A program made the position numbers and the translations under genes. A stretch of DNA of 64,000 nt, taken from positions 25,880,427 through 25,944,426 of the forward strand of contig OX442315.1 in the NCBI GenBank assembly GCA_949358305.1, given 5' to 3'. This DNA is from Strigamia acuminata. Taxonomy: Eukaryota > Arthropoda > Chilopoda > Geophilomorpha > Linotaeniidae. This document shows positions 1,148-17,916 of the stretch, in pieces; positions within the stretch are counted from its first letter, which is position 1, and every line of letters starts with the position of its first letter. The notes under the pieces were generated by a model. It saw only the letters and a program-made list of their open reading frames with translations, made no database searches and was not told the origin of the DNA.

Positions 1148-3691
1148 ATGGACGTAGAGGAATTATTAGCCTACAAAGTAATTTTTATCTTATTCGAAAT
1201 TATTGAAATTTCTTTAATGGTGAATTTATGTTTTACTTGTAGCCAAACAGTGGTCCAAAAAGACGAACTGAGGAAGATGAAATTGATGATGAGCTACGCA
1301 AAAAGGCAAGACGATTGGCCAAAGTACCAGATCCAGCAGGAGAGGAAGATGAAAAACTTCTAAATGCATCTCGAAAAAATGAGGACGAAGATATTGGTAT
1401 CAGTAATGAAGAAAGGGAGCAAATTTTGAAAATGGTCGAAGCTGAACCCGAGGTTTAAATTGTCGAAATTAGTTCGTGACTTTGAATCATTGAGTTGTAT
1501 TATTTACAGATAGAGCGCTTGGATGACATGTTTTTGAAAAAGATGATTTTGATCTTTGAAAAGAAGGTTTTAAAAAACCAGGAATTAAGAATTAAATTCC
1601 CAGATCTTCCTGAGAAGTAAATACAATTTATATTTATTTAATTTTGCTATTAACAAAACTGATTGTTTTATTACAAGGTTTATGGAATCTGAAGTTGAAT
1701 TAAACGACGCCATACAAGAAATGCACGTAGTAGCAACACAACCCGATTTATATCACATTCTTGTTGAATTGAGTGCGGTGCAAAGTTTTCTTGGTTTATT
1801 AACGCATGAAAATACTGGTGAGTATTAAAAATAACCGTTTGAGCATTGATATTATTAATATTAATGTATTTTTTTCTCAAGATATCGCCATAGCAGTCGT
1901 CGATTTAATCCAGGAATTAACGGACGTTGATACTTTGATCGAAAGCGAAGACGGAGCAGCCATTTTAATTGATTCTTTAGTAATTCAAAGTTATATTTTT
2001 AATTTTCTATTATTAAGTTTCCTTTTTTTAAGCTTGAAGGTCAAATTATTGCTTTAATGGTTCAAAATCTTGACCGATTAGATGAATCAGTGAAAGAAGA
2101 AAGTGAAGGAATTCATAACACGTTAGGTAATTTTGTTAAAAAGTAATTAATTTATTAATTATTTTAATTTTTTAATTTTTATATTTTAGCCATCGTAGAA
2201 AATATCGTTGAATTTAAACCAGAAATCTGTGTTGAAGCGGCTCAACAAGGATTACTCCAATGGATACTGAAACGATTGAAAGTAATTTCTTCTTAACCTG
2301 TTATTCTTTATTTAATGTAAATTTGTAGTAATTTTCTAATGTAATTTTTGTAGGCTAAAATTCCATTTGATAGTAACAAATTGTACGCGAGTGAAATACT
2401 GTCCATTTTATTACAAAATCACGAAGAAAATCGACAGCAGTTGGGAGAAATTGACGGAATTGATGTATTACTACAACAGTTGGCCGTACGCTATTCTTAG
2501 CTAAATATAATAATTTTATTATCATTTATTAATTTATTATATTTTACTGTATTTTCAGTTTTTTAAGAGACACGATCCTTCGACAGGAGAAGAAAATGAA
2601 ATGATGGAGAATTTGTTCAATTCTTTGTCTTCAGCTTTGATGCACACACCAAATCGTGAGCGATTTCTTAAGGGTGAAGGGTTACAACTTATGAATCTGA
2701 TGCTTAGGTGATTATAGACGCAATTTTTAAATTAATTATATGTATTAATCGTACAAATTGTTTTTCAGAGAGAAAAAACTTTCTCGTAGTGGTGCATTGA
2801 AAGTGCTCGATCATGCAATGTGCAATTTAGAAGGCGCAGATAATTGTAATAAATTCGTAGATATTTTGGGCCTTCGAACTGTTTTCCCTCTTTTCATGAA
2901 AACTCCTCAAAAACAGAAACGTAAAGGTCTTTCGACCGAAGATCACGAAGGTAAAGTTATTGTTTAATTTCAAATTATTGTTGTTGTTGTTTTTTAAATT
3001 GACATTCATTTCAGAACACGTTTGTTCCATCCTGGCATCCATGTTGAAAAATTGTAAAGGAAATCAGCGTCAACGTTTGATGAACAAATTTACTGAAAAT
3101 GATCATGAGAAAGTCGACAGATTAATGGAACTTCATTTTAAATACTTAGAAAAAGTTCAAGTTATTGACAATCAAATCGAAAAGGAGAAATTGGTAAAAT
3201 TCATTTTATATTAATAGAAAATAATTTTTTCGTTGTCTAATATAATAACCTGTCCATTTATCAGGATTTACAAAAATTGGGTGAAGAAATTGATTCTACG
3301 ATGGAAGATGACTTTTATTTACAAAGATTAGACGCTGGATTATTCACACTCCAGCTAATCGATTATATCATGCTCGAGTGCTGCGCTTCTGTTCCAGCTA
3401 GTGTAAGTTTTAAACGATTTAAAGTTTTCATTTTGATAATTATATCATTTTTTATTCGGTTTTAGATAAAGCAAAGGGTACTTCAAATGTTAAACTTACG
3501 CGGCGGCTCGATTAAAACTATAAGAAACATAATGAGAGGTAATATTGGTGGACTGCTGTCTTTTTTCAGTTAATGATACCTTTTTTTTGTTATAAATTAC
3601 AGAATGTGCAGGAAATATTGGCAATGCAAAAGATGATGAATCACGAGAAATAGAGCAGCAGCGGATATTGCAGTTAGTCGATAAATTTTAA
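1148..3691 (+). CDS. CTNNBL1: Beta-catenin-like protein 1 (CTNNBL1)
   Basis: Fourteen coding exons (1148-1177, 1243-1452, 1510-1616, 1678-1817, 1882-1979, 2033-2126, 2190-2281, 2354-2485, 2559-2707, 2769-2950, 3015-3193, 3265-3402, 3466-3538, 3603-3691) join in frame to 570 residues, close to the 563 of the human protein. The first ~90 residues carry a basic stretch (KRRTEEDEIDDELRKKARR) expected of a nuclear localisation signal. ARM/HEAT-like helical repeats follow (for example AIVDLIQELTDVDTLIE-type segments and ILSILLQNHEENRQQL), and the family's C-terminal end is LNLRGGSIKTIRNIMRE. In the known family it is a spliceosome-associated armadillo protein binding CDC5L and PRP31. All introns are about 50-70 bp. 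It converges with the glycogenin gene with only 85 bp between stop codons. Confidence 0.95.
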
Positions 3692-3701
3692 CTTGCAACA
3701 A

Positions 3702-3718
3702 AATAAATGTCATTTATT
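3702..3718. terminator. Palindromic bidirectional poly(A) signal
   Basis: The 17-bp sequence AATAAATGTCATTTATT contains AATAAA for the plus-strand CTNNBL1 mRNA (3702-3707) and, reversed, AATAAA for the minus-strand glycogenin mRNA (3718-3713). It lies between the two stop codons (3691 and 3777). Each transcript should therefore be cleaved past the other's signal, and their 3' ends should overlap. Signal use is inferred. Confidence 0.7.
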
Positions 3719-3776: not shown

Positions 3777-6130
3777 TTATTTCCTCGGCACCAGATCAGA
3801 TTCTTGTGAAAAGAGAAAATCTAGTCGTTTTATAATGTTGTCACAGCTGTGTCGTCCAGTATAGTCAATTCGGCCCGACTCCCAATCGTGCATTCCCGAA
3901 AAATCGTTAATCTGCAATCGAAAAATAGCAATCGCCTGACTTTAAGTGGATCCTGAAATTAATTTACCTGATAGCCAGGGAGATCTGTGATAGAGGTTTG
4001 ATTTTCAGGTTCAATATTCGATCGATTTTTCATCAAGTCAGGTTCAATATTCGATCGATTTTTCGTCAAGTCAGGTTCAATATTCGATCGATTTTTCGTC
4101 AAGTCAACATTTTCTTCACGTGGCCGCATTTCCACGAATTCGGTTTCATCTTCGAACTTCCTTTCCATGAATAAAACACCTAATTTCTGCTGAATGTTTT
4201 CGAATTCATCTTTTCGCATATAATCCGCTTGTCCTTCTTCCCAATCTCTCCTTCTTGCCTGTGATTCAAAAGTCTCTCGGTCTAAAGTTTCCGGTCGGTT
4301 TCGTGATTTGTCACCAGATGATGTTTTTGGTTTGACTGATGGCCGAATTTCTGCTAACGAAGTAGATCCTCCCGATTCCTCATGTCTACTAGTGACTTGC
4401 AGTTGTGAGGATTCGGTTGTTGTAGTAGACGTTCGAGGCTTATGCGTAAACTCTGACTCAAACGTTAAGGCACCTTCGCTTCGTTGTCGGAGTAAAAACG
4501 GGTCAACCTCTGGAGGAGTCGAATCCATTACAAACGCAGCTTGACGTTGAGCCTGATTAGTTGAGCGAATAGGACTGGCTGTGTCGGAACGAAAATCAGT
4601 CTTAATTTGATCGGAATATTGCATAGGTTGAAGTTCGTGAAAAGGCTGTCGATATTGCAGTTGGAAGACTGCAGATTCGGAAAAAACCGACGACGATGCC
4701 TGAAAAAATAGTTGAACTAGCTCAGAAGTAATAGATATCTTTAAATAAATATCTATAAATAGGATTTGGTAAGCTACGATTAAAAGTTTGCACTTTAATG
4801 CTAATTGTGGGATCATGAGAGAGCACTCGGTCTGAATTTGTGCCAAGTTTTTACCTCTTTTGCTTTGCGATAAAGTTCCGGTTTTTTCGAGGCTTGTAAC
4901 AAATTCCATACAGTGTTAACATTACCACCTGCAGCAAGTTCGTGACAAACCTATACCAATATAATAAGTAATGGAAATTACATAAGGCATTTGTAAATTA
5001 AAACGGGTTATTCTTTAATAATTATAATAATACTTCCGGTAGTTGTCCGTATAGTTTATCTCGAAATACATCTAACCAGGTCTGGAGAAATGGATTCTGA
5101 GTATGCGAGTCCGGGTTTTGAGCACTAAAGTTTCCATTACTGTAATTCCAATGCGCCATCCACGGTTTTGGATGGCCAATAAAATGGGCTATTTTTGTCA
5201 TACTACCAAATCTAAATGTAAAGGAATTAATAATAAAATTAAATACTTGATGAATGACGACGTAGTTTAATTTTATATATATTTACTTTTGAAATGCTGG
5301 CGAATATGTGTAAACATAACCCACAATTACATTGTACACCACTGACAATCTTTTATCCAAATTGGTCAACCAATCTTTACCAAAATATGAGTTCAATAAA
5401 CCTTGATCACCACCTGGAAGTGTTAAAATTGTGTGAGATGTTTCATTTATATTTCTTATTGAACTCACCGTCAAAGCTTCCTTTGTCACCAGCTAGGGCA
5501 ATCAATGCTTGGTAAGTTGCATTTGAGGGGCTGTAAACAAACACTCCCGTATTAAAACAGTCCGGCCAACCTTGATCAGGAACTGCTGATAGTTCTTCCA
5601 TGTCAAATAATTCGTCACAGTTTTGTAAAACCTAAATTCAGAACCGCAATTACCTTATAATGAAAACAATTGAACATTTTCAATATTTTATTACTTACCA
5701 TTGTGTCGCAATCTAGAAATACACATTTCGTATATTTCGTCAAATTCCAACATTCGATTTTGGTCAAAGATGGCGATAATTCGGGTCTTTTAATTCGAGA
5801 ATCACTTCCATCCAAGATTGGCACTTCTATCACTTCATCATACACATTTAAAAGTAAATCCCTGCATGTAAAAAATAAAGATAAGAATAAAAAAATAAAA
5901 AAATATTATTTCTCTAACGAGGATTGAACAAATAATCACAACTTTTCCTGTTTAGCAGCTTATCTCGCCACCTTTTTTCCTCACCTAATTTCCAGACTTA
6001 ATTCATTGGTTACCAACACAACTTGATCATATTCTGTATTTTTGCTTAGTGAATGTCCTAAAACAAGGCAACCAAGAGCATCTGAGTCTCTGGCGGCAAG
6101 AGTAACGAATGCTTTTTGTGTTTGAGTCAT
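3777..6130 (-). CDS. GYG: Glycogenin glucosyltransferase, short isoform
   Basis: Eight exons (6130-5985, 5861-5699, 5631-5469, 5413-5287, 5211-5034, 4950-4855, 4699-3968, 3911-3777) give 579 residues. Glycogenin is a GT8 enzyme that glucosylates its own tyrosine with UDP-glucose to prime glycogen. Visible family marks are the start [23 protein letters not shown], shared here only in its features, the metal-binding DxD in [35 protein letters not shown] with the acceptor-type Tyr, and [13 protein letters not shown]. After the catalytic part comes a Ser/Thr-rich linker with three 11-residue repeats (NRSNIEP core). The C-terminal glycogen-synthase-binding motif appears twice: [10 protein letters not shown] and [11 protein letters not shown]. 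Vertebrate glycogenins normally end with one such motif. The start chosen is the ATG at 6130 just before the catalytic fold. Confidence 0.93.
3998..4110 (-). repeat. 33-bp coding minisatellite in glycogenin
   Basis: Three tandem 33-bp units encode an 11-residue repeat, D-L-(M/T)-K-N-R-S-N-I-E-P, inside exon 7 of glycogenin. They lie between the two glycogen-synthase-binding motifs. Units are nearly identical at the DNA level (repeated TTCAATATTCGATCGATTTT on the plus strand), so copy number may vary between individuals. Confidence 0.85.
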
Positions 6131-6722
6131 GTCTCATTCCGTATTTGATGACTATTTTGTCAACTATTGCTTTGGCGCCGGGCTTGGCCTTGACTCCTCT
6201 TCTGGTCTGATATCAGGACGATAACGACGAAGCAACCGGCTTTTCATGAATTATGGTCGCATACTAATCGACTTATTTCACTTTCTAATGAATATTAAAT
6301 TATTTTTGAAAATAAATAACGTAAAACTTCCAACTCTTAAAATCCACGTGAGAAAACACGTGTGAGTTCAAAAGTATGACGTAAAAACTATGAAAGTAAA
6401 TAAAAAGCAAACAAAATCCAGTTCCGGCTTGTATTGTTATCTAAATTTTAAATACTACTCCGTATCTGATAATGTTTAAATAATATTTTAAACTTAAAAA
6501 ATTTAAAGTTTGCACGATAACGTGATTTGGTCTTTGACCAGATCTCGAAAGGACAGTAAACGTTTGAAGGCGGGCCCTCAATTTGAAACACGTGCTTTAA
6601 ACGTAAGTGATTATAATTTTCAGGGGCATTTGAACACGTAATTTCCTACTGTAAAGCACATGTAGGAATAATTTTGCACAGAATTTTCTGAATGTATCGT
6701 AAATTTTTACCAATTACTATAC

Positions 6723-8539
6723 CTGAATTTTGTTGACATTGCCATCGACGTTAAAACAACTAATTTGTTTTGTGTGTATAATTTCAAAGTGTGGCCTAAA
6801 ATTAGAGCTCCAATAATCGAATCTGGATTTATTGCTGCAGTTACAAAAGCCATTTTCTTCTCTTCGTCTTCAATCTTGATTTGTTTGGCTGGCGATGACT
6901 GATCAGTAACTGTAACATCAGAGGATGGAAGTTCCGAGATAAAAGTGCCGAATGAATCGATTTTTGGTACAGTATCAGATACTCTTTTCATTTTTTCTAG
7001 AGAACGTTTTCGTTTTCTCCGTTTTCTTCCTTTACTTTGAGTCATCAGCAGTTGTTCCGTGTGTTCGCGTAACCAGTCTTTTATGTTACTGACGTATTGT
7101 GTTGGATGAACATCGATTTGGTCTTCAGTTTTTAAATTAGACAACTCAGCTGTTCTGGTTAAATCAGCAATATTTGTGTCTTGAATTGGTGCAATGTTGC
7201 TGTGCTCTGCAGATGCATATGATTTAAACATTTTGGTCGAACGAACATGTGACTTGGTTATCTGTTTTGATTTTTCTACTTCTCCAACTTTAAACAATTT
7301 CTCAGTTGTAGATTTTGCTTTTTCAGGATGTTGCTTTACAAGAGTTTTCGGTTTTTTTATGAGTTCAATATCTTGCACAAACTGAGGTGAAGCCAATTCA
7401 AAATTAGTGGTTAAATCAGAAGGTGATTTCATGAAAAATTCTGATTTATTCTTGTCGTCTTGAAATAACTCAGAACTTCTGCTCATTTTATGGTGTGGCT
7501 TTCTTGGAATTTTAGGTTTTGTCGTTTCGTCTACTGGAGTTGAAGGTTTTGACAATTTTATAATATCTCTAACTTCTACTGGAGTTTTTGTTGATTGCAT
7601 TTCTTTTTTACAATAGGGTGCTTCTGGTCGTGAGCTTAATCTTAATGCACTGCCCTGAGTTTCATGTAAAGTGAATTTTGAATTAGTGTGAATGATTTTT
7701 TCTTGAATTATTGAAAGCGATAGGGTGTCATCACGTTTAACACGAAAATCGTCATATTTTTTTTGCGTTTTTGGCTGTTTTAAACCACAAATAGAAGCAT
7801 CAGGAACTGTCAAGGGTAAATATATTTTCTTTTCTCTGGTTGTATAAACATTTTCCTTATTCTGCTCAAAACTGAAAGTGGGTAATATCGAATGCGAGTA
7901 ATTTTCTTCAGATCTGCTGGTTGCATTGTCCAATGAAATAAATTTTTTATTTAGGATTTTTAGAATTCTGAATAATCCATCTTCTACATCTTGAAGCGCG
8001 TTACAAAGCGGTGAATATGCACTTGTATTCATTTGCACATCTGTGAATAATTCAAGTTATGATATGATAGAAGTTAGGGATCTTGCAGAATTTGATTCTG
8101 TAAGTACATATATTAATTCGAATTTTAGTTGTCTTGAGTTACTAATTCAAATTGCACAAGATCCGTATTACAATTAAATGAAGTGCTATTCTTTACCTTT
8201 AACATTTCTCTTTCCAGCACCAGCATTGACATTTCCTTCTGACTCTTGACTCTCTTGTCGTAAATGAGGGCTAAAATATGATTAAACCCACGCTATTTTT
8301 CCCCACAATTAAAATTAGTGTCAAATTGAGATAAAGTGAAATTCTATTGTAGTTATAAGAGTGACACCAATTGGGTCTTATTTACTATTACGTACTTCTC
8401 GACATTGAAAATTTATTGCTTTAATAAATTTCTACATAAATTAAAGTAATTTAACATGTAATTTACACCCATACTAAGAAATAAAACCATACTTTAGACT
8501 ATAATAACTTAAGTTTTCAATTTCAATGTCAAACTGCAT
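6723..8539 (-). CDS. GYG: Alternative 5' exons of glycogenin (long N-terminal extension)
   Basis: The large exon 8040-6723 ends in a second copy of the glycogenin start (AFVTAAINPDSIIGALILGH, then LVVLTSMAMSTKFR) with a consensus donor (CAG/GTATAG) in exactly the same phase as exon 1 of the short form. Spliced to the shared acceptor at 5861 it gives an intact catalytic domain. In-frame upstream exons can be built at 8270-8197 and 8539-8493 (ATG at 8539). With these, the long isoform would be 1,010 residues. The ~430-residue extension is Lys/Ser/Thr-rich with a very basic KGRKRRKRKRSLEKMKR segment (nuclear-signal-like) and no domain I recognise. An internal ATG at 6853 could also start a plain glycogenin. 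Tandem exon duplication is seen; use of both starts is inferred. The gap 6131-6722 holds only AT-rich DNA, presumably the short-form promoter. Confidence 0.7.
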
Positions 8540-9082
8540 GGATTTTTGTATTTAATGATGTGAAAATAGTACAAAAACAGGATATTTGAATTTTGTAAAC
8601 TGACACTAATGTTAAATGTTTAATAATCAGCTTGTGTGTTGTGTTTCAGTTTTAATAATCTTATTTACTGTGGGAATATAGTTTTAAAAGAAACAAAAAT
8701 GTTATACAAGGTGGTTAGAAAGTCTGGTTCACAGTAAATAATTCCCAAACTGTTCTAGATGTTGATTCAGCAAAATGATTGTAAGGGTAGTATGTCGGGG
8801 AAATCCAATTATGACATCCAATTTGACCTCTGAGGTCATCTTCAAGGTCATCCATATTGTAACTCGAGAACCGTGACAGATAGAGCAAAAAAGTGAATTA
8901 GAAAGTTGTAGAGCACCATCCAATTAATCTAAAACTGTTCTTAAAATTATTTCTTACTGAAAAGTTTTGAGAAAAAAGGTCTGAAACGTTAGTCTACTCA
9001 GCGTTGATCGAGACGTGCGCCTACTCGAGTTTGCAGGCTCCCAAGCATACTCCCCGGCAGGCTCCCCAGCAGGCTTCCCAGG
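8540..9082. other. AT-rich intergenic region
   Basis: I see no gene. The last 60 bases are a short GC-rich run of imperfect GGCTCCC(C)AGCA repeats that leads into the 183-bp tandem array. Confidence 0.6.
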
Positions 9083-9636
9083 TTGTTGAGATATTCCAGT
9101 TTAAATTTGTGGCACCAGATTAAGGACTTTGCAATTTCAGTTGCGCCATATTGAAACGGTCGCCGCTCAAAAACTAAGAGGGCTGCAGCGTTGTCCTTTT
9201 CCGGGTTTGTAGAGGAGAAAGTCCTCTATCGTTTGGCTTTTGAAAAAAAAAGAATCTGTGGTCAGGTTGTTGCGATATTCCAGTTTGAAGTTGAGGCACG
9301 ACATTTAGGTCTTTGCAATTTCAGTTGCGCCATGTTGAAACGGTTGCCGCTCGAAAACTAAGAGGGATGCAGCGTTGTCCTTTTCAGGGTTTGTAGCGGA
9401 GAAAGTCCTCTATTGTTTGGGTTTTGAAAAAAAAGAATCCGTGGTCACGTTGTTGAGGTATTCCAGTTTGAATCTGTGGCACCAGATTCGGAAATTTAAT
9501 AAAAGTCTTTTTTGCGCTATATTCAAATGGTTGCTGCTCGAAAACTAAGAGGGGTAAACACTTGTGGTTTTCAGGATGTGTTAAGGAGAAAGTCCTCTTT
9601 CTTTTGGTGTAAAAACCATTAAAACTGTGGTAAAAA
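9083..9636. repeat. 183-bp tandem repeat, three copies
   Basis: Three diverged head-to-tail units start at 9083, 9266 and 9449, each opening with GTTGTTGNGRTATTCCAGTTT. Each continues through TTTGCAATTTCAGTTGCGCC (weakened in the third), CGAAAACTAAGAGGG and GGAGAAAGTCCTCT to an A-run. Spacing is 183 bp in both steps. No open frame is conserved between units, so this is a small satellite-like array rather than a gene. Confidence 0.85.
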
Positions 9637-9837
9637 AATTGGGATTTGTTCTATCTGTAGTTTGGGCGAATGTGAATGTGGTGCCAACTTCAGCCCGGTA
9701 TTTTCATCAATGTATTTCAATGTATCTCTCAACCAATCACAGCGCGTCAGCCACTTCAATTTAGGAAAGGCCAGCTTACCTGATTCTGGACTATCTGGAG
9801 TGTCTGGATGTGCCATAAAGGTGTTACGTACCAGGCG

Positions 9838-10095
9838 CGACATGGGTTGGCGCGACAGTCAAATTCGCGCCTACGCATCTGGGTAGCTGAGTGACGGATG
9901 CGGTAGCGCGATGTCGCTATTAATCATGCCAGTGGTATGGCCTGGCGCGACACTGTGAAGTTTACATACAATTTTATGAAATAGCGCGACATTTAGGTAT
10001 CGATGTCGCTATTAATCATGCCGGTGGTATGGCCTGGCGCGACACCGTGTATATGAAATAGCGCGACATTTGGGTATTACTTGGCGCGACACGTC
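9838..10095. repeat. GGCGCGACA-rich repeat cluster
   Basis: The 9-mer (G/A)GCGCGACA recurs at least seven times within about 250 bp. A longer unit (ATGTCGCTATTAATCATGCC...TGGCCTGGCGCGACAC) repeats at 9911 and 10003, a period of 92 bp. No gene is visible. Each core resembles TTGGCGCG E2F-type sites, but function is unproven. Confidence 0.65.
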
Positions 10096-10700: not shown

Positions 10701-10904
10701 ATTGCAAAAATTCAAAATTTTTAGGGGAGACACATACAAAAATTGCTTATTTCTTGCTTGTAGGACAAAAAATTAAAATTTGGGCTCAATAGCGGCGTAG
10801 AACAGGTCATTCCAAACATATTTTAAAAAAAAGAAAAAAAGAGACTCATTTTGAACAGTTGTAGACTGGAAAAACGAATTAACATGCAAGTGTATGGGAT
10901 AACA

Positions 10905-10918
10905 GTGGCGCCATCTGT
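10905..10918 (-). promoter_or_regulatory. CTCF-like site beside inverted-repeat arm
   Basis: On the minus strand it reads ACAGATGGCGCCAC, an exact fit to the CTCF core YAGRKGGCRSY. It lies 18 bp outside arm 1 of the inverted repeat. Binding is inferred only. Confidence 0.4.
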
Positions 10919-10935
10919 ATTTCAAAGTTGGCGTG

Positions 10936-11799
10936 ACACATTGTCAACAGTTAGAATTATTCGACATATCATACTGCAAAAATGTAACCCCTAATGCATG
11001 CTTATTTGTTTTAAAGAATCTACCCTTTCTCAAACGGTTTGAACATTCTAAGTGGCAAAATTTGTTAATTCTTTTAAGACAAGAACTTCGTTCCAATCGA
11101 ACATTGACTTATTCTATTGAACGGGCAGCGATATGTTTTGGCTTCACGTGTGATGTCATCACTGCAACTACTATATTTCCAAATTTACGTATAGTTGGTA
11201 TTGAGGCGACTTGTGTTATGAGTTTTAGCACGCACATTGCCGAAGCATTACGTGAATCATTCGGAAAGAAATTAATTGCCTTACACCTTGCTTACATCGA
11301 TCAAGTCAATGTTAGAAATATTGACTTTTGCTGTCCCAACTTACGAAGCTTGTCATTAAGAGAATGTACCTTTAATGATGAATTAGACAATAATGAATAT
11401 TTGCAAAATTCGACTAATTTTATGTTCAAAAATTTACAAAAGTTGTGTGCAAGCGGTTGTGTTGGACGCATTCCCGAATTACATTTGCGAATGTTATTAA
11501 GCTGTCGCAGTATTAAGGAGTTAGAATTAGGATACTACGACACCCTAACTGATGACTTGGTTACACAATTTGCAATGCCAAATCTCAGGAGTTTAAAATT
11601 TCATCAGTGTGATTCGATTAGTTTAAGCTCAATTATAAAATTAGTAGACATTGAAAGCCCTTTAAATGAACTGTCTTGCGAATATTGTACAAAGCTCAAC
11701 CAATCGACTTGCTGTGCAATCAGAGAGCTCATTAAAAGAAAAAATTTGGATTTGAAGTTTACTGAAATACATTTAAATTTGGCATTACATAACTTATAG
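10936..11799 (+). pseudogene. 5'-truncated LRR gene copy
   Basis: It encodes the last ~287 residues of the LRR protein at 15533-16828 with no change and the same stop. The first ~144 residues, including the F-box-like segment, are missing because the inverted repeat begins inside the coding region. The DNA before it is unrelated and offers only a GTG in frame. It is therefore most likely a non-functional fragment created by the inverted duplication, unless it is transcribed as an antisense partner for the intact copy. Confidence 0.8.
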
Positions 11800-12000
11800 A
11801 CGGCTCCTTTGTAAAAATAATATTTGAAAGAAAAAATTAAAATTAAAATAAAACACTTACCGTATTTTACCGAATAAGAGTCGCCCTCGTTTTGTAGCCG
11901 CACATCAGAGGCGGTTTGAAATAAGGGGTACCATGCCCTATGGCAAATCGCCTAAGGGCGACACGTCTAAATTTCGCCGTCCATCCTTGTTTTCACCCTT
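10936..12000 (+). repeat. Inverted repeat, arm 1
   Basis: This 1,065-bp arm pairs with 15332-16396 in reverse orientation. The coordinates sum to 27,332 along the whole arm, so no indels occur, and every translated part I compared is identical. The arm ends inside a coding sequence on the outer side (10936) and inside a MITE on the inner side (12000). The arms are separated by 3,331 bp. Confidence 0.93.
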
Positions 12001-15331: not shown

Positions 15332-16396
15332 AAGGGTGAAAACAAGGATGGACGGCGAAATTTAGACGTGTCGCCCTTAGGCGATTTGCCATAGGGCATG
15401 GTACCCCTTATTTCAAACCGCCTCTGATGTGCGGCTACAAAACGAGGGCGACTCTTATTCGGTAAAATACGGTAAGTGTTTTATTTTAATTTTAATTTTT
15501 TCTTTCAAATATTATTTTTACAAAGGAGCCGTCTATAAGTTATGTAATGCCAAATTTAAATGTATTTCAGTAAACTTCAAATCCAAATTTTTTCTTTTAA
15601 TGAGCTCTCTGATTGCACAGCAAGTCGATTGGTTGAGCTTTGTACAATATTCGCAAGACAGTTCATTTAAAGGGCTTTCAATGTCTACTAATTTTATAAT
15701 TGAGCTTAAACTAATCGAATCACACTGATGAAATTTTAAACTCCTGAGATTTGGCATTGCAAATTGTGTAACCAAGTCATCAGTTAGGGTGTCGTAGTAT
15801 CCTAATTCTAACTCCTTAATACTGCGACAGCTTAATAACATTCGCAAATGTAATTCGGGAATGCGTCCAACACAACCGCTTGCACACAACTTTTGTAAAT
15901 TTTTGAACATAAAATTAGTCGAATTTTGCAAATATTCATTATTGTCTAATTCATCATTAAAGGTACATTCTCTTAATGACAAGCTTCGTAAGTTGGGACA
16001 GCAAAAGTCAATATTTCTAACATTGACTTGATCGATGTAAGCAAGGTGTAAGGCAATTAATTTCTTTCCGAATGATTCACGTAATGCTTCGGCAATGTGC
16101 GTGCTAAAACTCATAACACAAGTCGCCTCAATACCAACTATACGTAAATTTGGAAATATAGTAGTTGCAGTGATGACATCACACGTGAAGCCAAAACATA
16201 TCGCTGCCCGTTCAATAGAATAAGTCAATGTTCGATTGGAACGAAGTTCTTGTCTTAAAAGAATTAACAAATTTTGCCACTTAGAATGTTCAAACCGTTT
16301 GAGAAAGGGTAGATTCTTTAAAACAAATAAGCATGCATTAGGGGTTACATTTTTGCAGTATGATATGTCGAATAATTCTAACTGTTGACAATGTGT
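15332..16396 (-). repeat. Inverted repeat, arm 2
   Basis: Reverse-complement partner of 10936-12000. It covers 141 bp of the TA-flanked MITE (one terminal repeat ends at 15472) and the 3' two thirds of the intact LRR gene. Identity over the coding part indicates a recent duplication, gene conversion between arms, or an assembly artefact. Confidence 0.93.
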
Positions 16397-16828
16397 AGCG
16401 ACTGCAGTTACAACTTCATCTGTACAACAATCTTGTCCCTGAAAATTGAGATGTCGTATTTGCGGTAATAGTTGCACCATCTTAATCACGCATTCGGGTG
16501 GAATTTTTTCAATATTGTGAAACGGGTCTTGTGATGCGACTAATATTGTAAGATTTTTACCAACCTGCGCTAGCTTATCGAAAAGTTTAGCTTGCGGCAG
16601 ATCAAACATTCTCAATAATAACTTTCTTGTGCCAGAATGAATAAAAACGGAAGAATGAAGAAGTCGGTTCCGATCATTCAATACATTGTCCACTTGGAGA
16701 AAAGTCAAGATCTCTGCAATGAGAATGTTTGGAAGACTCGATAAAGAAGGATGAAGTGTATCGTAATGTGTAGATATCATTTGAAAACACAATGTTTCCA
16801 AACTTGGTGCTGATTTCCGTAGAGGCAT
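15533..16828 (-). CDS. Single-exon leucine-rich-repeat (F-box-like) protein
   Basis: An uninterrupted 431-residue frame from ATG 16828 (MPLRKSAPSLETL). The upstream in-frame TTG is not used as the start here. Residues ~25-60 (SLSSLPNILIAEILTFLQ) look like a degenerate F-box or the start of a ZYG11/PRAME-type LRR protein. From ~110 on there are irregular leucine-rich repeats of the cysteine-containing class (HLNFQGQDCCTDEVV, LELFDISYCKNVT, LRSLSLRECTFN, IKELELGYYDTLTDD). Such proteins usually select substrates for cullin-RING ubiquitin ligases, but this role is inferred. Lack of introns among intron-rich neighbours suggests a retrocopied or expanded family. Its 3' two thirds lie in the inverted repeat. 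It faces away from syntaxin-16. Confidence 0.7.
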   Translation of the reverse strand: MPLRKSAPSLETLCFQMISTHYDTLHPSLSSLPNILIAEILTFLQVDNVLNDRNRLLHSSVFIHSGTRKLLLRMFDLPQAKLFDKLAQVGKNLTILVASQDPFHNIEKIPPECVIKMVQLLPQIRHLNFQGQDCCTDEVVTAVATHCQQLELFDISYCKNVTPNACLFVLKNLPFLKRFEHSKWQNLLILLRQELRSNRTLTYSIERAAICFGFTCDVITATTIFPNLRIVGIEATCVMSFSTHIAEALRESFGKKLIALHLAYIDQVNVRNIDFCCPNLRSLSLRECTFNDELDNNEYLQNSTNFMFKNLQKLCASGCVGRIPELHLRMLLSCRSIKELELGYYDTLTDDLVTQFAMPNLRSLKFHQCDSISLSSIIKLVDIESPLNELSCEYCTKLNQSTCCAIRELIKRKNLDLKFTEIHLNLALHNL

Positions 16829-17916
16829 AGCGAGATCAGTCAAAAGAATGAATATAGAATGTTTACACCGACTCTTTTATATCGTACAAACACAGGGTGA
16901 ACGTTTCATGTAATCTTACATTTAACAAGTCACCTACGATTGAAATGAAATCGCACAGCGTACGTTCCATAAACTATTAAGGCACAGACAACGGAGTCGA
17001 TGATCCAGAATTATAGATAATTTACCAATACTCCATCATGATCAAGCACCTCTACTTGAGTTATTTTAAGTTATTTATGGTAGATACTTTTAATTAAGCA
17101 AATTAAGCAATCTATTTCTGGTTTCAATAATCACAGCAGATTTTGTCTTTTTGAGGTCGCAGCTATGACTGTTTATCTATTGACAATCTTTTATGAATTC
17201 TAAACGCGCCCTCCGGTGTCTTCAGCATTTATAAATTTCGAGCTAATCGTATCTCAATTCAGTAGAACAAAAACTGGCTAGCAACATCAATCCGCAATGA
17301 TGGGGTGGACATGGTACTCGTACAATGTCACAAGATTTAGCTGCATTGGATTTTTCCTATCTCACATTGTTTTGGGATATACCTGGTCTTTTTGCTTCAG
17401 GTAAATACACAAAAATAATTGCAAAATAAATTTGTTTATTTTGTCAGAATTAAGTATAAAGCAAATTTGAATACAAAATTACCGGAAAATACCATTCCTA
17501 AATCCTATGATAAAAATTGAAGAAAATAATATTAATTTTAAATCAGCGCCACCTATCGTTAAAATATAAAATAAAATAAGCAAAGAACACAATAACGTAG
17601 TTTTTGGGCAGAAAATTAAGAATATAGTTCGAAATGGCATAAAGATTGTCAAAATTTAATGCAGGGAGACACAGAGTCAAATTTTGCAGAACGAGCCATG
17701 TTTTTGCAGTTGAGGCACCCACTTTATCCGCAGCGCGTTGTGTTTTCGAACCGGAAGAAGCACATAAACGCTCGTCCGAGTAGGTGGTGCCACCTGCAAC
17801 TACCAGTAGTGAGAAATTCAACTTAGAGGACAGATTTAGTGTTGTGATGCTTCAGTTTATAATTCCAGACACCTCTTATACTTTCTAAACGCCCAACCAT
17901 TCAAATTAGATCAAAT
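16829..17916. promoter_or_regulatory. Divergent LRR/STX16 intergenic region
   Basis: It separates two genes transcribed outward. At 17544-17556 the minus strand reads ATAGGTGGCGCTG, a perfect CTCF-type core. A short exon-like open segment ending in a donor (TTCAG/GTAAAT at 17400) lies at about 17295-17400. No further exon for it was found. Confidence 0.45.

What the first reader, a model, noticed from the sequence alone, without database searches (positions are those of the whole stretch)
3777..8539. Glycogenin with a duplicated first exon and a ~430-residue unknown extension
Seen: the exon at 8040-6723 ends in a second, diverged copy of the glycogenin start (AFVTAAINPDSIIGALILGH...) with a donor in the same phase as the canonical first exon (6130-5985); both can splice to the acceptor at 5861. 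Upstream exons 8270-8197 and 8539-8493 keep frame, giving a 1,010-residue form. Known: glycogenin is a cytosolic self-glucosylating primer. Inferred: the gene makes two primers with different nucleotide-binding first strands, and the long one carries a Lys/Arg-rich tail that could direct it to the nucleus or another site.
Basis: partly seen in the sequence, partly recalled or inferred. Interest (0 to 1): 0.75.

Follow-up and report, generated by a model that had tools for sequence, protein, structure and literature searches.

The report
Centipede glycogenin with spare first exon
In a centipede genome, a gene for glycogenin (the protein that starts glycogen) has, upstream of its normal first exon, a second, diverged copy of that exon fused to a long unknown coding stretch, so the gene could make a second, much longer form; whether it does is untested.

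Summary
The window lies on chromosome 2 of Strigamia acuminata. The gene is a diverged glycogenin paralogue; a canonical-type copy sits on chromosome 8 and a sister copy on chromosome 6. Upstream of its ordinary first exon (6130-5985) lies a 449-codon open frame (8056-6707; best of 100 simulated windows 229). It ends in a diverged copy of the glycogenin first exon: 39.5% identical, 30.1 bits against a profile of 72 first exons (best of 2000 shuffles 10.0), with a donor at the homologous place and phase. Simulated neutral decay rarely keeps such a copy (0 and 4 of 3000).

Best explanation: a UGT1-like alternative first exon that swaps the first strand-helix-strand of the nucleotide site and adds about 390-436 probably disordered, Lys-rich residues. 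No transcript data could be reached. The one named S. maritima relative has the ordinary start; no relative of the extension was found. The two small upstream exons are one of four comparable guesses. Nuclear targeting rests on one 8-residue basic run. A relic or a separate upstream gene is not excluded.

The parts
6723..8040 (-). Alternative (upstream) first-exon candidate: about 390 codons of unknown, probably disordered sequence followed by a diverged glycogenin exon-1 copy; donor after 6723 (CAG|gtatag). Open frame runs 8056-6707; first in-frame ATG 8032.
6722..6853 (-). Diverged copy of the glycogenin first exon (ATG 6853, MAFVTAAINPDSIIGALILGHTLKLYTQNKLVVLTSMAMSTKFR; the exon ends at 6723 and the last codon is completed across the splice)
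   Evidence: tblastn; profile score; neutral simulation; alignment through it to glycogenin-1 chains
5985..6130 (-). Canonical first exon ([20 protein letters not shown]...LEI), donor TAG|gtgagg; matches the start of S. maritima T1J521 (P0001)
5699..5861 (-). Shared exon 2; highest-scoring acceptor between 6715 and 5700; DxD motif (DCD) at its end
5469..5631 (-). Shared exon 3 of the GT8 domain
5287..5413 (-). Shared exon 4; most of FDGGDQG and the acceptor tyrosine region YVYTYSPAF (5318-5292)
5034..5211 (-). Shared exon 5, end of the GT8 domain
4855..4950 (-). Shared exon 6
3968..4699 (-). Shared exon 7: linker, first glycogen-synthase-binding-like motif [26 protein letters not shown] (4246-4169), 33-nt tandem repeat [11 protein letters not shown] x3 (4105-4007)
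3777..3911 (-). Last exon: second glycogen-synthase-binding-like motif [26 protein letters not shown] (3887-3810), stop TAA; AATAAA at 3718 follows
7004..7027 (-). Run of eight basic residues (RKRRKRKR) in the extension, NLS-like
8197..8270 (-).
8493..8539 (-).

Best explanation
The locus is a diverged, Strigamia-lineage glycogenin paralogue with two alternative first exons, arranged like the vertebrate UGT1 cluster. Shown: the upstream exon is one long open frame that ends in a homologue of exon 1, with an intact donor at the homologous place and phase. Inferred: a transcript begun upstream (5' end near 8040-8540 or further) joins 6723 to 5861, the highest-scoring acceptor downstream and the only one of four tried that keeps the frame open, so that the canonical first exon is skipped as intron; a transcript begun near 6200 uses the canonical exon. 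The two proteins share exons 2-8 (DxD, acceptor tyrosine, two glycogen-synthase-binding-like motifs). They differ in the first strand-helix-strand of the nucleotide-binding fold, and the upstream form also carries a long, probably disordered, Lys-rich N-terminal tail. Most likely role (inferred): a promoter-specific isoform that still binds glycogen synthase but primes differently or elsewhere in the cell.
For: 449-codon open frame against a best of 229 in 100 simulated windows, and GC1>GC2>GC3 over the whole exon as in the known exons. Exon-1 homology that stops exactly at the donor. The spliced product aligns to solved glycogenin-1 from residue 2 onward, E 1e-73, most of that score coming from the shared exons. 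Neutral decay to about 40% identity keeps both an open frame and 30.1 bits in 0 of 3000 runs (canonical exon as ancestor) and 4 of 3000 (chromosome 8 exon as ancestor). No further glycogenin exons at E 1 or better in the window that the upstream copy could join. No AATAAA or ATTAAA between the fallback stop at 6707 and the canonical exon. 5861 is the highest-scoring acceptor between 6715 and 5700 and the only one of four tried that keeps the frame open.
Against: No transcript, EST or proteomic evidence was reachable. The one named S. maritima relative (P0001) shows only the canonical start. No homologue of the extension, and none among the 120 of 480 hits that could be read (best E 0.6). The copied exon is a very long branch (2.42 changes per column) that the tree does not place; its changes are not clearly fewer at conserved columns (Fisher p 0.05, 0.40, 0.55 and 0.16 against four references); taken alone its 43 codons do not show GC1>GC2 (0.34, 0.37, 0.28). 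Residues of the UDP site differ from rabbit (L8A, T10I, Y14S). The donor at 6723 is moderate and a higher-scoring one lies 12 nt downstream at 6711; acceptors at 6576 (8.6) and 6440 (6.8) are not negligible and would end the frame within 45 codons. The selection could be ancient, from when the copy had its own downstream exons.
Confidence: 0.57

Rival explanations
1. A relic: the upstream frame is what is left of a tandem glycogenin copy (or of a gene that captured exon 1) whose downstream exons are gone. It is no longer used, or only spliced at low level as noise.
For: Very long branch; UDP-site residues changed; the S. maritima entry lacks it; no relatives found.
Against: 449 codons still open with period-3 composition; intact donor; 0 and 4 of 3000 neutral runs keep what it keeps; no glycogenin exon remnant found between the two first exons.
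Confidence: 0.2
2. A separate upstream gene that ends at the stop at 6709-6707 (...FRYSNW*), or by splicing to an acceptor such as 6576, and happens to carry a glycogenin-like C-terminus; glycogenin itself has only the canonical first exon.
For: The frame ends 5 codons past the donor; the extension shows no relation to the 120 glycogenins read; an acceptor at 6576 scores 8.6 and would end the frame 45 codons on.
Against: The homology stops exactly at the donor; no AATAAA or ATTAAA between 6707 and 6130, though the weaker variant AATACA occurs at 6435; an isolated GT8 strand-helix-strand has no obvious use without the rest of the domain (inference).
Confidence: 0.14
3. The upstream exon is used, but translation starts at ATG 6853 (MAFVT...), so only a normal-size glycogenin with a different first strand is made and the upstream 390-436 codons are a separate or regulatory frame.
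For: ATG 6853 sits directly before AFVT with the context AAAATGG.
Against: The upstream frame is in phase with it and is itself coding-like; it would then be an in-frame N-terminal extension.
Confidence: 0.09

Closest known systems
UGT1 (UGT1A) cluster of vertebrates (PMC3325998, start of the abstract seen in a search listing only; the rest recalled)
   Same: Variable first exons that code the N-terminal part of a UDP-sugar enzyme, each upstream of one common set of exons.
   Different: Each first exon there has its own promoter, which is not shown here; glycogenin is family GT8, not a UGT; two first exons only, one with a long non-homologous extension.
Glycogenin-1/2 (GYG1, GYG2)
   Same: GT8 domain, DxD, acceptor tyrosine, C-terminal glycogen-synthase-binding-like motif.
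   Different: Here a 4-residue gap near the lid, DCD for DAD and changed first-strand residues, two GS-binding-like motifs and the N-terminal extension.
Human GYG2 as a non-autoglucosylating, GS-suppressing paralogue (PMC12267440, passages seen)
   Same: A diverged paralogue beside a canonical glycogenin; a possible model for how the diverged Strigamia copies act.
   Different: No activity data here; different sequence changes.
P0002, an unnamed 1588-aa glycogenin with a 1014-residue N-terminal extension and a hydrophobic, anchor-like start
   Same: A very long tail before the glycogenin domain.
   Different: Tail not detectably related to the window's (149 of 300 shuffles score as high; ungapped 287 of 400).

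Membership tests
Glycogenin (GT8) | GT8 domain related to solved glycogenins | tested here: met
   Alternative-exon form (254 aa typed) matches glycogenin-1 chains from residue 2 to 247, E 1e-73
Glycogenin (GT8) | DxD metal site and acceptor tyrosine (Y194 rabbit, Y195 human) | tested here: met
   D101, D103 and Y194 columns kept; they lie in the shared exons. Role of Y195 from passages of PMC9188544; the others recalled
Glycogenin (GT8) | First-strand UDP-binding residues (recalled: L8, T9/T10, N11, Y14) | tested here: inconclusive
   Canonical: L A A R ... D; alternative: A A I N ... S; each form keeps part
Glycogenin (GT8) | C-terminal glycogen-synthase-binding region of about 34 residues | tested here: inconclusive
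   Two stretches resemble it by eye, against a recalled pattern; region named in passages of PMC9188544; no profile test and no binding test
Glycogenin (GT8) | Self-glucosylation | not testable with these tools
   Needs protein
UGT1-like variable first exons | Homologous first exons with the same donor phase before one common exon set | tested here: met
UGT1-like variable first exons | Inner first exon lacks a competing acceptor, so it is skipped | tested here: inconclusive
   Highest acceptor 6715-5700 is 5861 (13.2; 11.0 left out of its own matrix), but 6576 scores 8.6 and 6440 6.8; only 5861 of four tried keeps the frame
UGT1-like variable first exons | A promoter for each first exon; both transcripts observed | not testable with these tools
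   No RNA data; promoter scans were not run

The most novel reading that the evidence does not exclude
The gene makes a second glycogenin isoform in which a divergent first nucleotide-binding unit is combined with a long disordered tail carrying a nuclear-localisation-like basic cluster, giving a compartment-specific (for example nuclear or chromatin-associated) glycogen primer or decoy under its own promoter.
Probability: 0.13. Interest if true: 0.7.

Novelty: new variant of a known kind. Interest (0 to 1): 0.42.

Why it matters
If used, it would show the UGT1 trick (exchangeable first exons that rewrite the donor-sugar half of an enzyme) evolving in a self-glucosylating primer, together with a large N-terminal tail on a protein that usually begins at its Rossmann fold. 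It would also give a simple system to ask how two primers with different UDP-glucose sites share glycogen synthase.

Tried and rejected
Origin of the extension: no Pfam or NCBIfam family above cut-off (the best Pfam match, a phage family at E 0.016, is below its cut-off), no PDB chain, no second copy in the genome at E 10 or better, no protein homologue. By the tool's length rule one search scored only proteins of about 263-838 aa. One search covered a 120-residue piece and had 460 candidates. One search scored 7981 candidates, mostly glycogenin-like among the 120 of 480 hits listed. A diverged homologue could therefore be missed.

Fold: AlphaFold of the long exon alone, single sequence, mean pLDDT 39.8. 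Taken as probably disordered with two or three possible helices; a single-sequence model of a protein without relatives is weak evidence, and too poor for a fold search.

Link to P0002's long tail through a WLxxxTxxLL resemblance: rejected, no better than shuffles. P0002's first 256 residues have no match in this genome (the tool warns that an empty answer without a known positive shows nothing).

Dating the exon duplication by tree: rejected as unresolved. The tree used 19 of the 78 rows of the exon-1 alignment; ALT sits on a branch of 2.42, beside P0002 (85/53), and the five groupings tested that hold ALT have AU p 0.15-0.36. N11 and A18 shared with canonical glycogenins hint that it branched before the chromosome 2/6 paralogues, but this is only a hint.

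Literature (listings unless said otherwise): 'glycogenin' with 'insect' and 'isoform' 40 papers, 20 listed; with 'Drosophila' 95, 20 listed; with 'nucleus' and 'nuclear glycogen' 2; with 'alternative first exon' 1, a liver glucose-6-phosphate review by its title; with 'myriapod' 0; with 'Asp162'/'Tyr194' 2. No listed title is about alternative first exons of glycogenin. Passages seen in PMC9188544 and PMC12267440.

Full report
Where it is. The genome held for the window has 237,517,015 bases in 157 contigs. TTAGG repeats start contig C1 at base 1, and the best-scoring protein relative is from Strigamia maritima. The S. acuminata genome note gives 237,534,282 bp in 158 scaffolds and chromosomes 2, 6 and 8 of 37.79, 14.72 and 10.36 Mb; contigs C3, C8 and C10 have 37.79, 14.71 and 10.36 Mb. 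So the window is very probably chromosome 2 of the centipede Strigamia acuminata. That section lists DNA and Hi-C data for the specimen and no RNA.

The gene. On the minus strand, exons 6130-5985, 5861-5699, 5631-5469, 5413-5287, 5211-5034, 4950-4855, 4699-3968 and 3911-3777 join with GT-AG borders into a 579-residue glycogenin. Its GT8 domain is 81% identical to S. maritima T1J521 (P0001, and 205 of 252), which begins with the same kind of first exon. The genome has at least two more glycogenins: a canonical-type one on chromosome 8 (150 of 250 aligned residues identical to rabbit) and a sister copy on chromosome 6 (178 of 253 identical to the window's). In a tree of first exons the window gene, P0001 and the chromosome 6 copy form a clade (100/98). 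They share a 4-residue gap near the lid, DCD for DAD, and R for N at rabbit position 11. The window gene is therefore a diverged paralogue, not the species' only glycogenin. Two stretches near its C-terminus (4246-4169 and 3887-3810) resemble by eye the glycogen-synthase-binding motif; the pattern is recalled.

The upstream exon. The frame 8056-6707 has 449 codons without a stop. The longest in 100 order-1 Markov copies of the window was 229, and with the exon's own composition 232 in 50. Its codon positions have GC 0.41, 0.36 and 0.26, the same order as the known exons (0.50, 0.39, 0.33); the intron 6722-6131 shows no such order, and the 43 copied codons alone do not either (0.34, 0.37, 0.28). 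The frame ends with a copy of the glycogenin first exon: E 5e-5 against the canonical exon in a tblastn over six stretches, 30.1 bits against a profile of 72 distinct first exons, best of 2000 shuffles 10.0. On the same profile the canonical exon scores 50.0, S. maritima 39.5, chromosome 6 57.9 and chromosome 8 96.3. The whole-genome search, made with the canonical exons 1-2, did not list the copy at E 0.001. The homology stops at the donor CAG|gtatag (6723), in the same phase as the canonical donor. If unspliced, the frame stops five codons later.

Is it kept by selection? I let the canonical exon and the chromosome 8 exon mutate without constraint down to about 40% identity. Of 3000 runs each, 574 and 567 stayed stop-free, 0 and 14 kept 30.1 bits, and 0 and 4 did both. 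This says that much of the divergence probably happened while the copy was held to the glycogenin pattern. It does not say when: it may date from a lost full-length tandem copy. The ancestor is assumed and indels were not modelled. Against it, identity is not clearly concentrated in conserved columns (Fisher p 0.052, 0.40, 0.55 and 0.16 against four references). Of 18 columns at least 90% conserved the copy matches 10, the canonical exon 13, S. maritima 11, chromosome 6 11 and chromosome 8 18, so the copy is about as diverged there as the accepted Strigamia exons.

Splicing. With a small score matrix from 12 donors and 12 acceptors of the three glycogenin genes, the donor at 6723 is in the top 7.8% of GTs; the gene's other donors range from 0.4% to 41%. 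The acceptor at 5861 is in the top 0.17% of AGs and the highest between 6715 and 5700; 6576 (8.6), 6440 (6.8) and 6687 (6.4) follow. Joined to 6723, only 5861 of these four keeps the frame open; the others stop within 45 codons. A higher-scoring donor at 6711 also keeps the frame into 5861 and would add four residues. No AATAAA or ATTAAA lies between 6707 and 6130, though the variant AATACA does at 6435; AATAAA at 3718 follows the last exon. No further glycogenin exon is found in the window at E 1 or better with a human query. So a transcript started upstream would most simply join 6723 to 5861, as in the UGT1 cluster, whose tandem variable first exons with their own promoters are described in the start of the abstract of PMC3325998 (listing). 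That the canonical exon is skipped is inference.

The 5' end. The first ATG inside the long exon is 8032.

The extension. It has no Pfam or NCBIfam member above cut-off, no PDB relative, no other copy in the genome and no protein homologue (limits given under tried and rejected). AlphaFold without an alignment gives mean pLDDT 39.8 with 369 of 444 residues under 50, and helices at 10-42, 318-338 and 347-360. It is 12% Lys and 11% Ser and has a run of eight basic residues, reached by 4 of 20000 shuffles. A nuclear role is only a guess.

Other long N-termini. Of the 120 glycogenin relatives that could be read (480 hits in all), 110 begin no more than 10 residues before the window protein's start, 5 have 10-60 residues more and 5 have over 60; only P0002 has a comparable tail, 1014 residues, and it is not detectably related.

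Function. Both forms keep the D101, D103, D159, D162, Y194 and K217 columns (rabbit numbering, roles recalled), because these lie in the shared exons. The S. maritima orthologue and the chromosome 6 copy have E at 162. Position 14, Tyr in the canonical-type sequences aligned, is D in the canonical first exon of this gene and S in the alternative. Human GYG2 does not self-glucosylate in complex and lowers glycogen synthase activity (PMC12267440, passages seen), so a diverged paralogue that regulates rather than primes is a fair alternative for the whole gene.

Verdict. The anatomy is real and coherent, the two-isoform reading is the most likely one (0.57), and expression and cross-species conservation are untested.

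Noticed in passing
window 10936-12000 and 15332-16396: A 1065-nt inverted repeat, 100% complementary, 3331 nt between the arms; it carries part of an open frame (447 aa at 15533-16876 minus, shorter copy 10903-11799 plus) with weak LRR-like Pfam matches, all below cut-off. Recent duplication, or an assembly fold-back.
   Followed up: partly
L006 871-1185 / 8941-9255, 451-610 / 9736-9895, 728-873 / 9252-9397: The chromosome 6 glycogenin copy lies between imperfect inverted repeats (arms of 146-315 nt, 90-94% complementary, 7.8-9.1 kb apart), as if copied within a larger duplicated or mobile unit.
   Followed up: partly
window 5861-5287; P0001; L006: The diverged Strigamia glycogenins share a 4-residue gap near the lid, DCD and R11, and two of three have E for D at position 162: possible non-priming glycogenins beside a canonical one.
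   Followed up: partly
window 4105-4007: Three head-to-tail 33-nt units ([11 protein letters not shown]) in the linker of the glycogenin; by eye one related stretch in S. maritima P0001.
   Followed up: no
P0002 (1588 aa, unnamed source): A glycogenin with a 1014-residue tail and a hydrophobic, membrane-anchor-like N-terminus followed by basic residues (by eye): possibly a membrane-bound glycogenin.
   Followed up: partly
window 2514-3465 plus strand: Open pieces that look like CTNNBL1 (recognised from memory) appear to lie tail-to-tail with the glycogenin gene.
   Followed up: no
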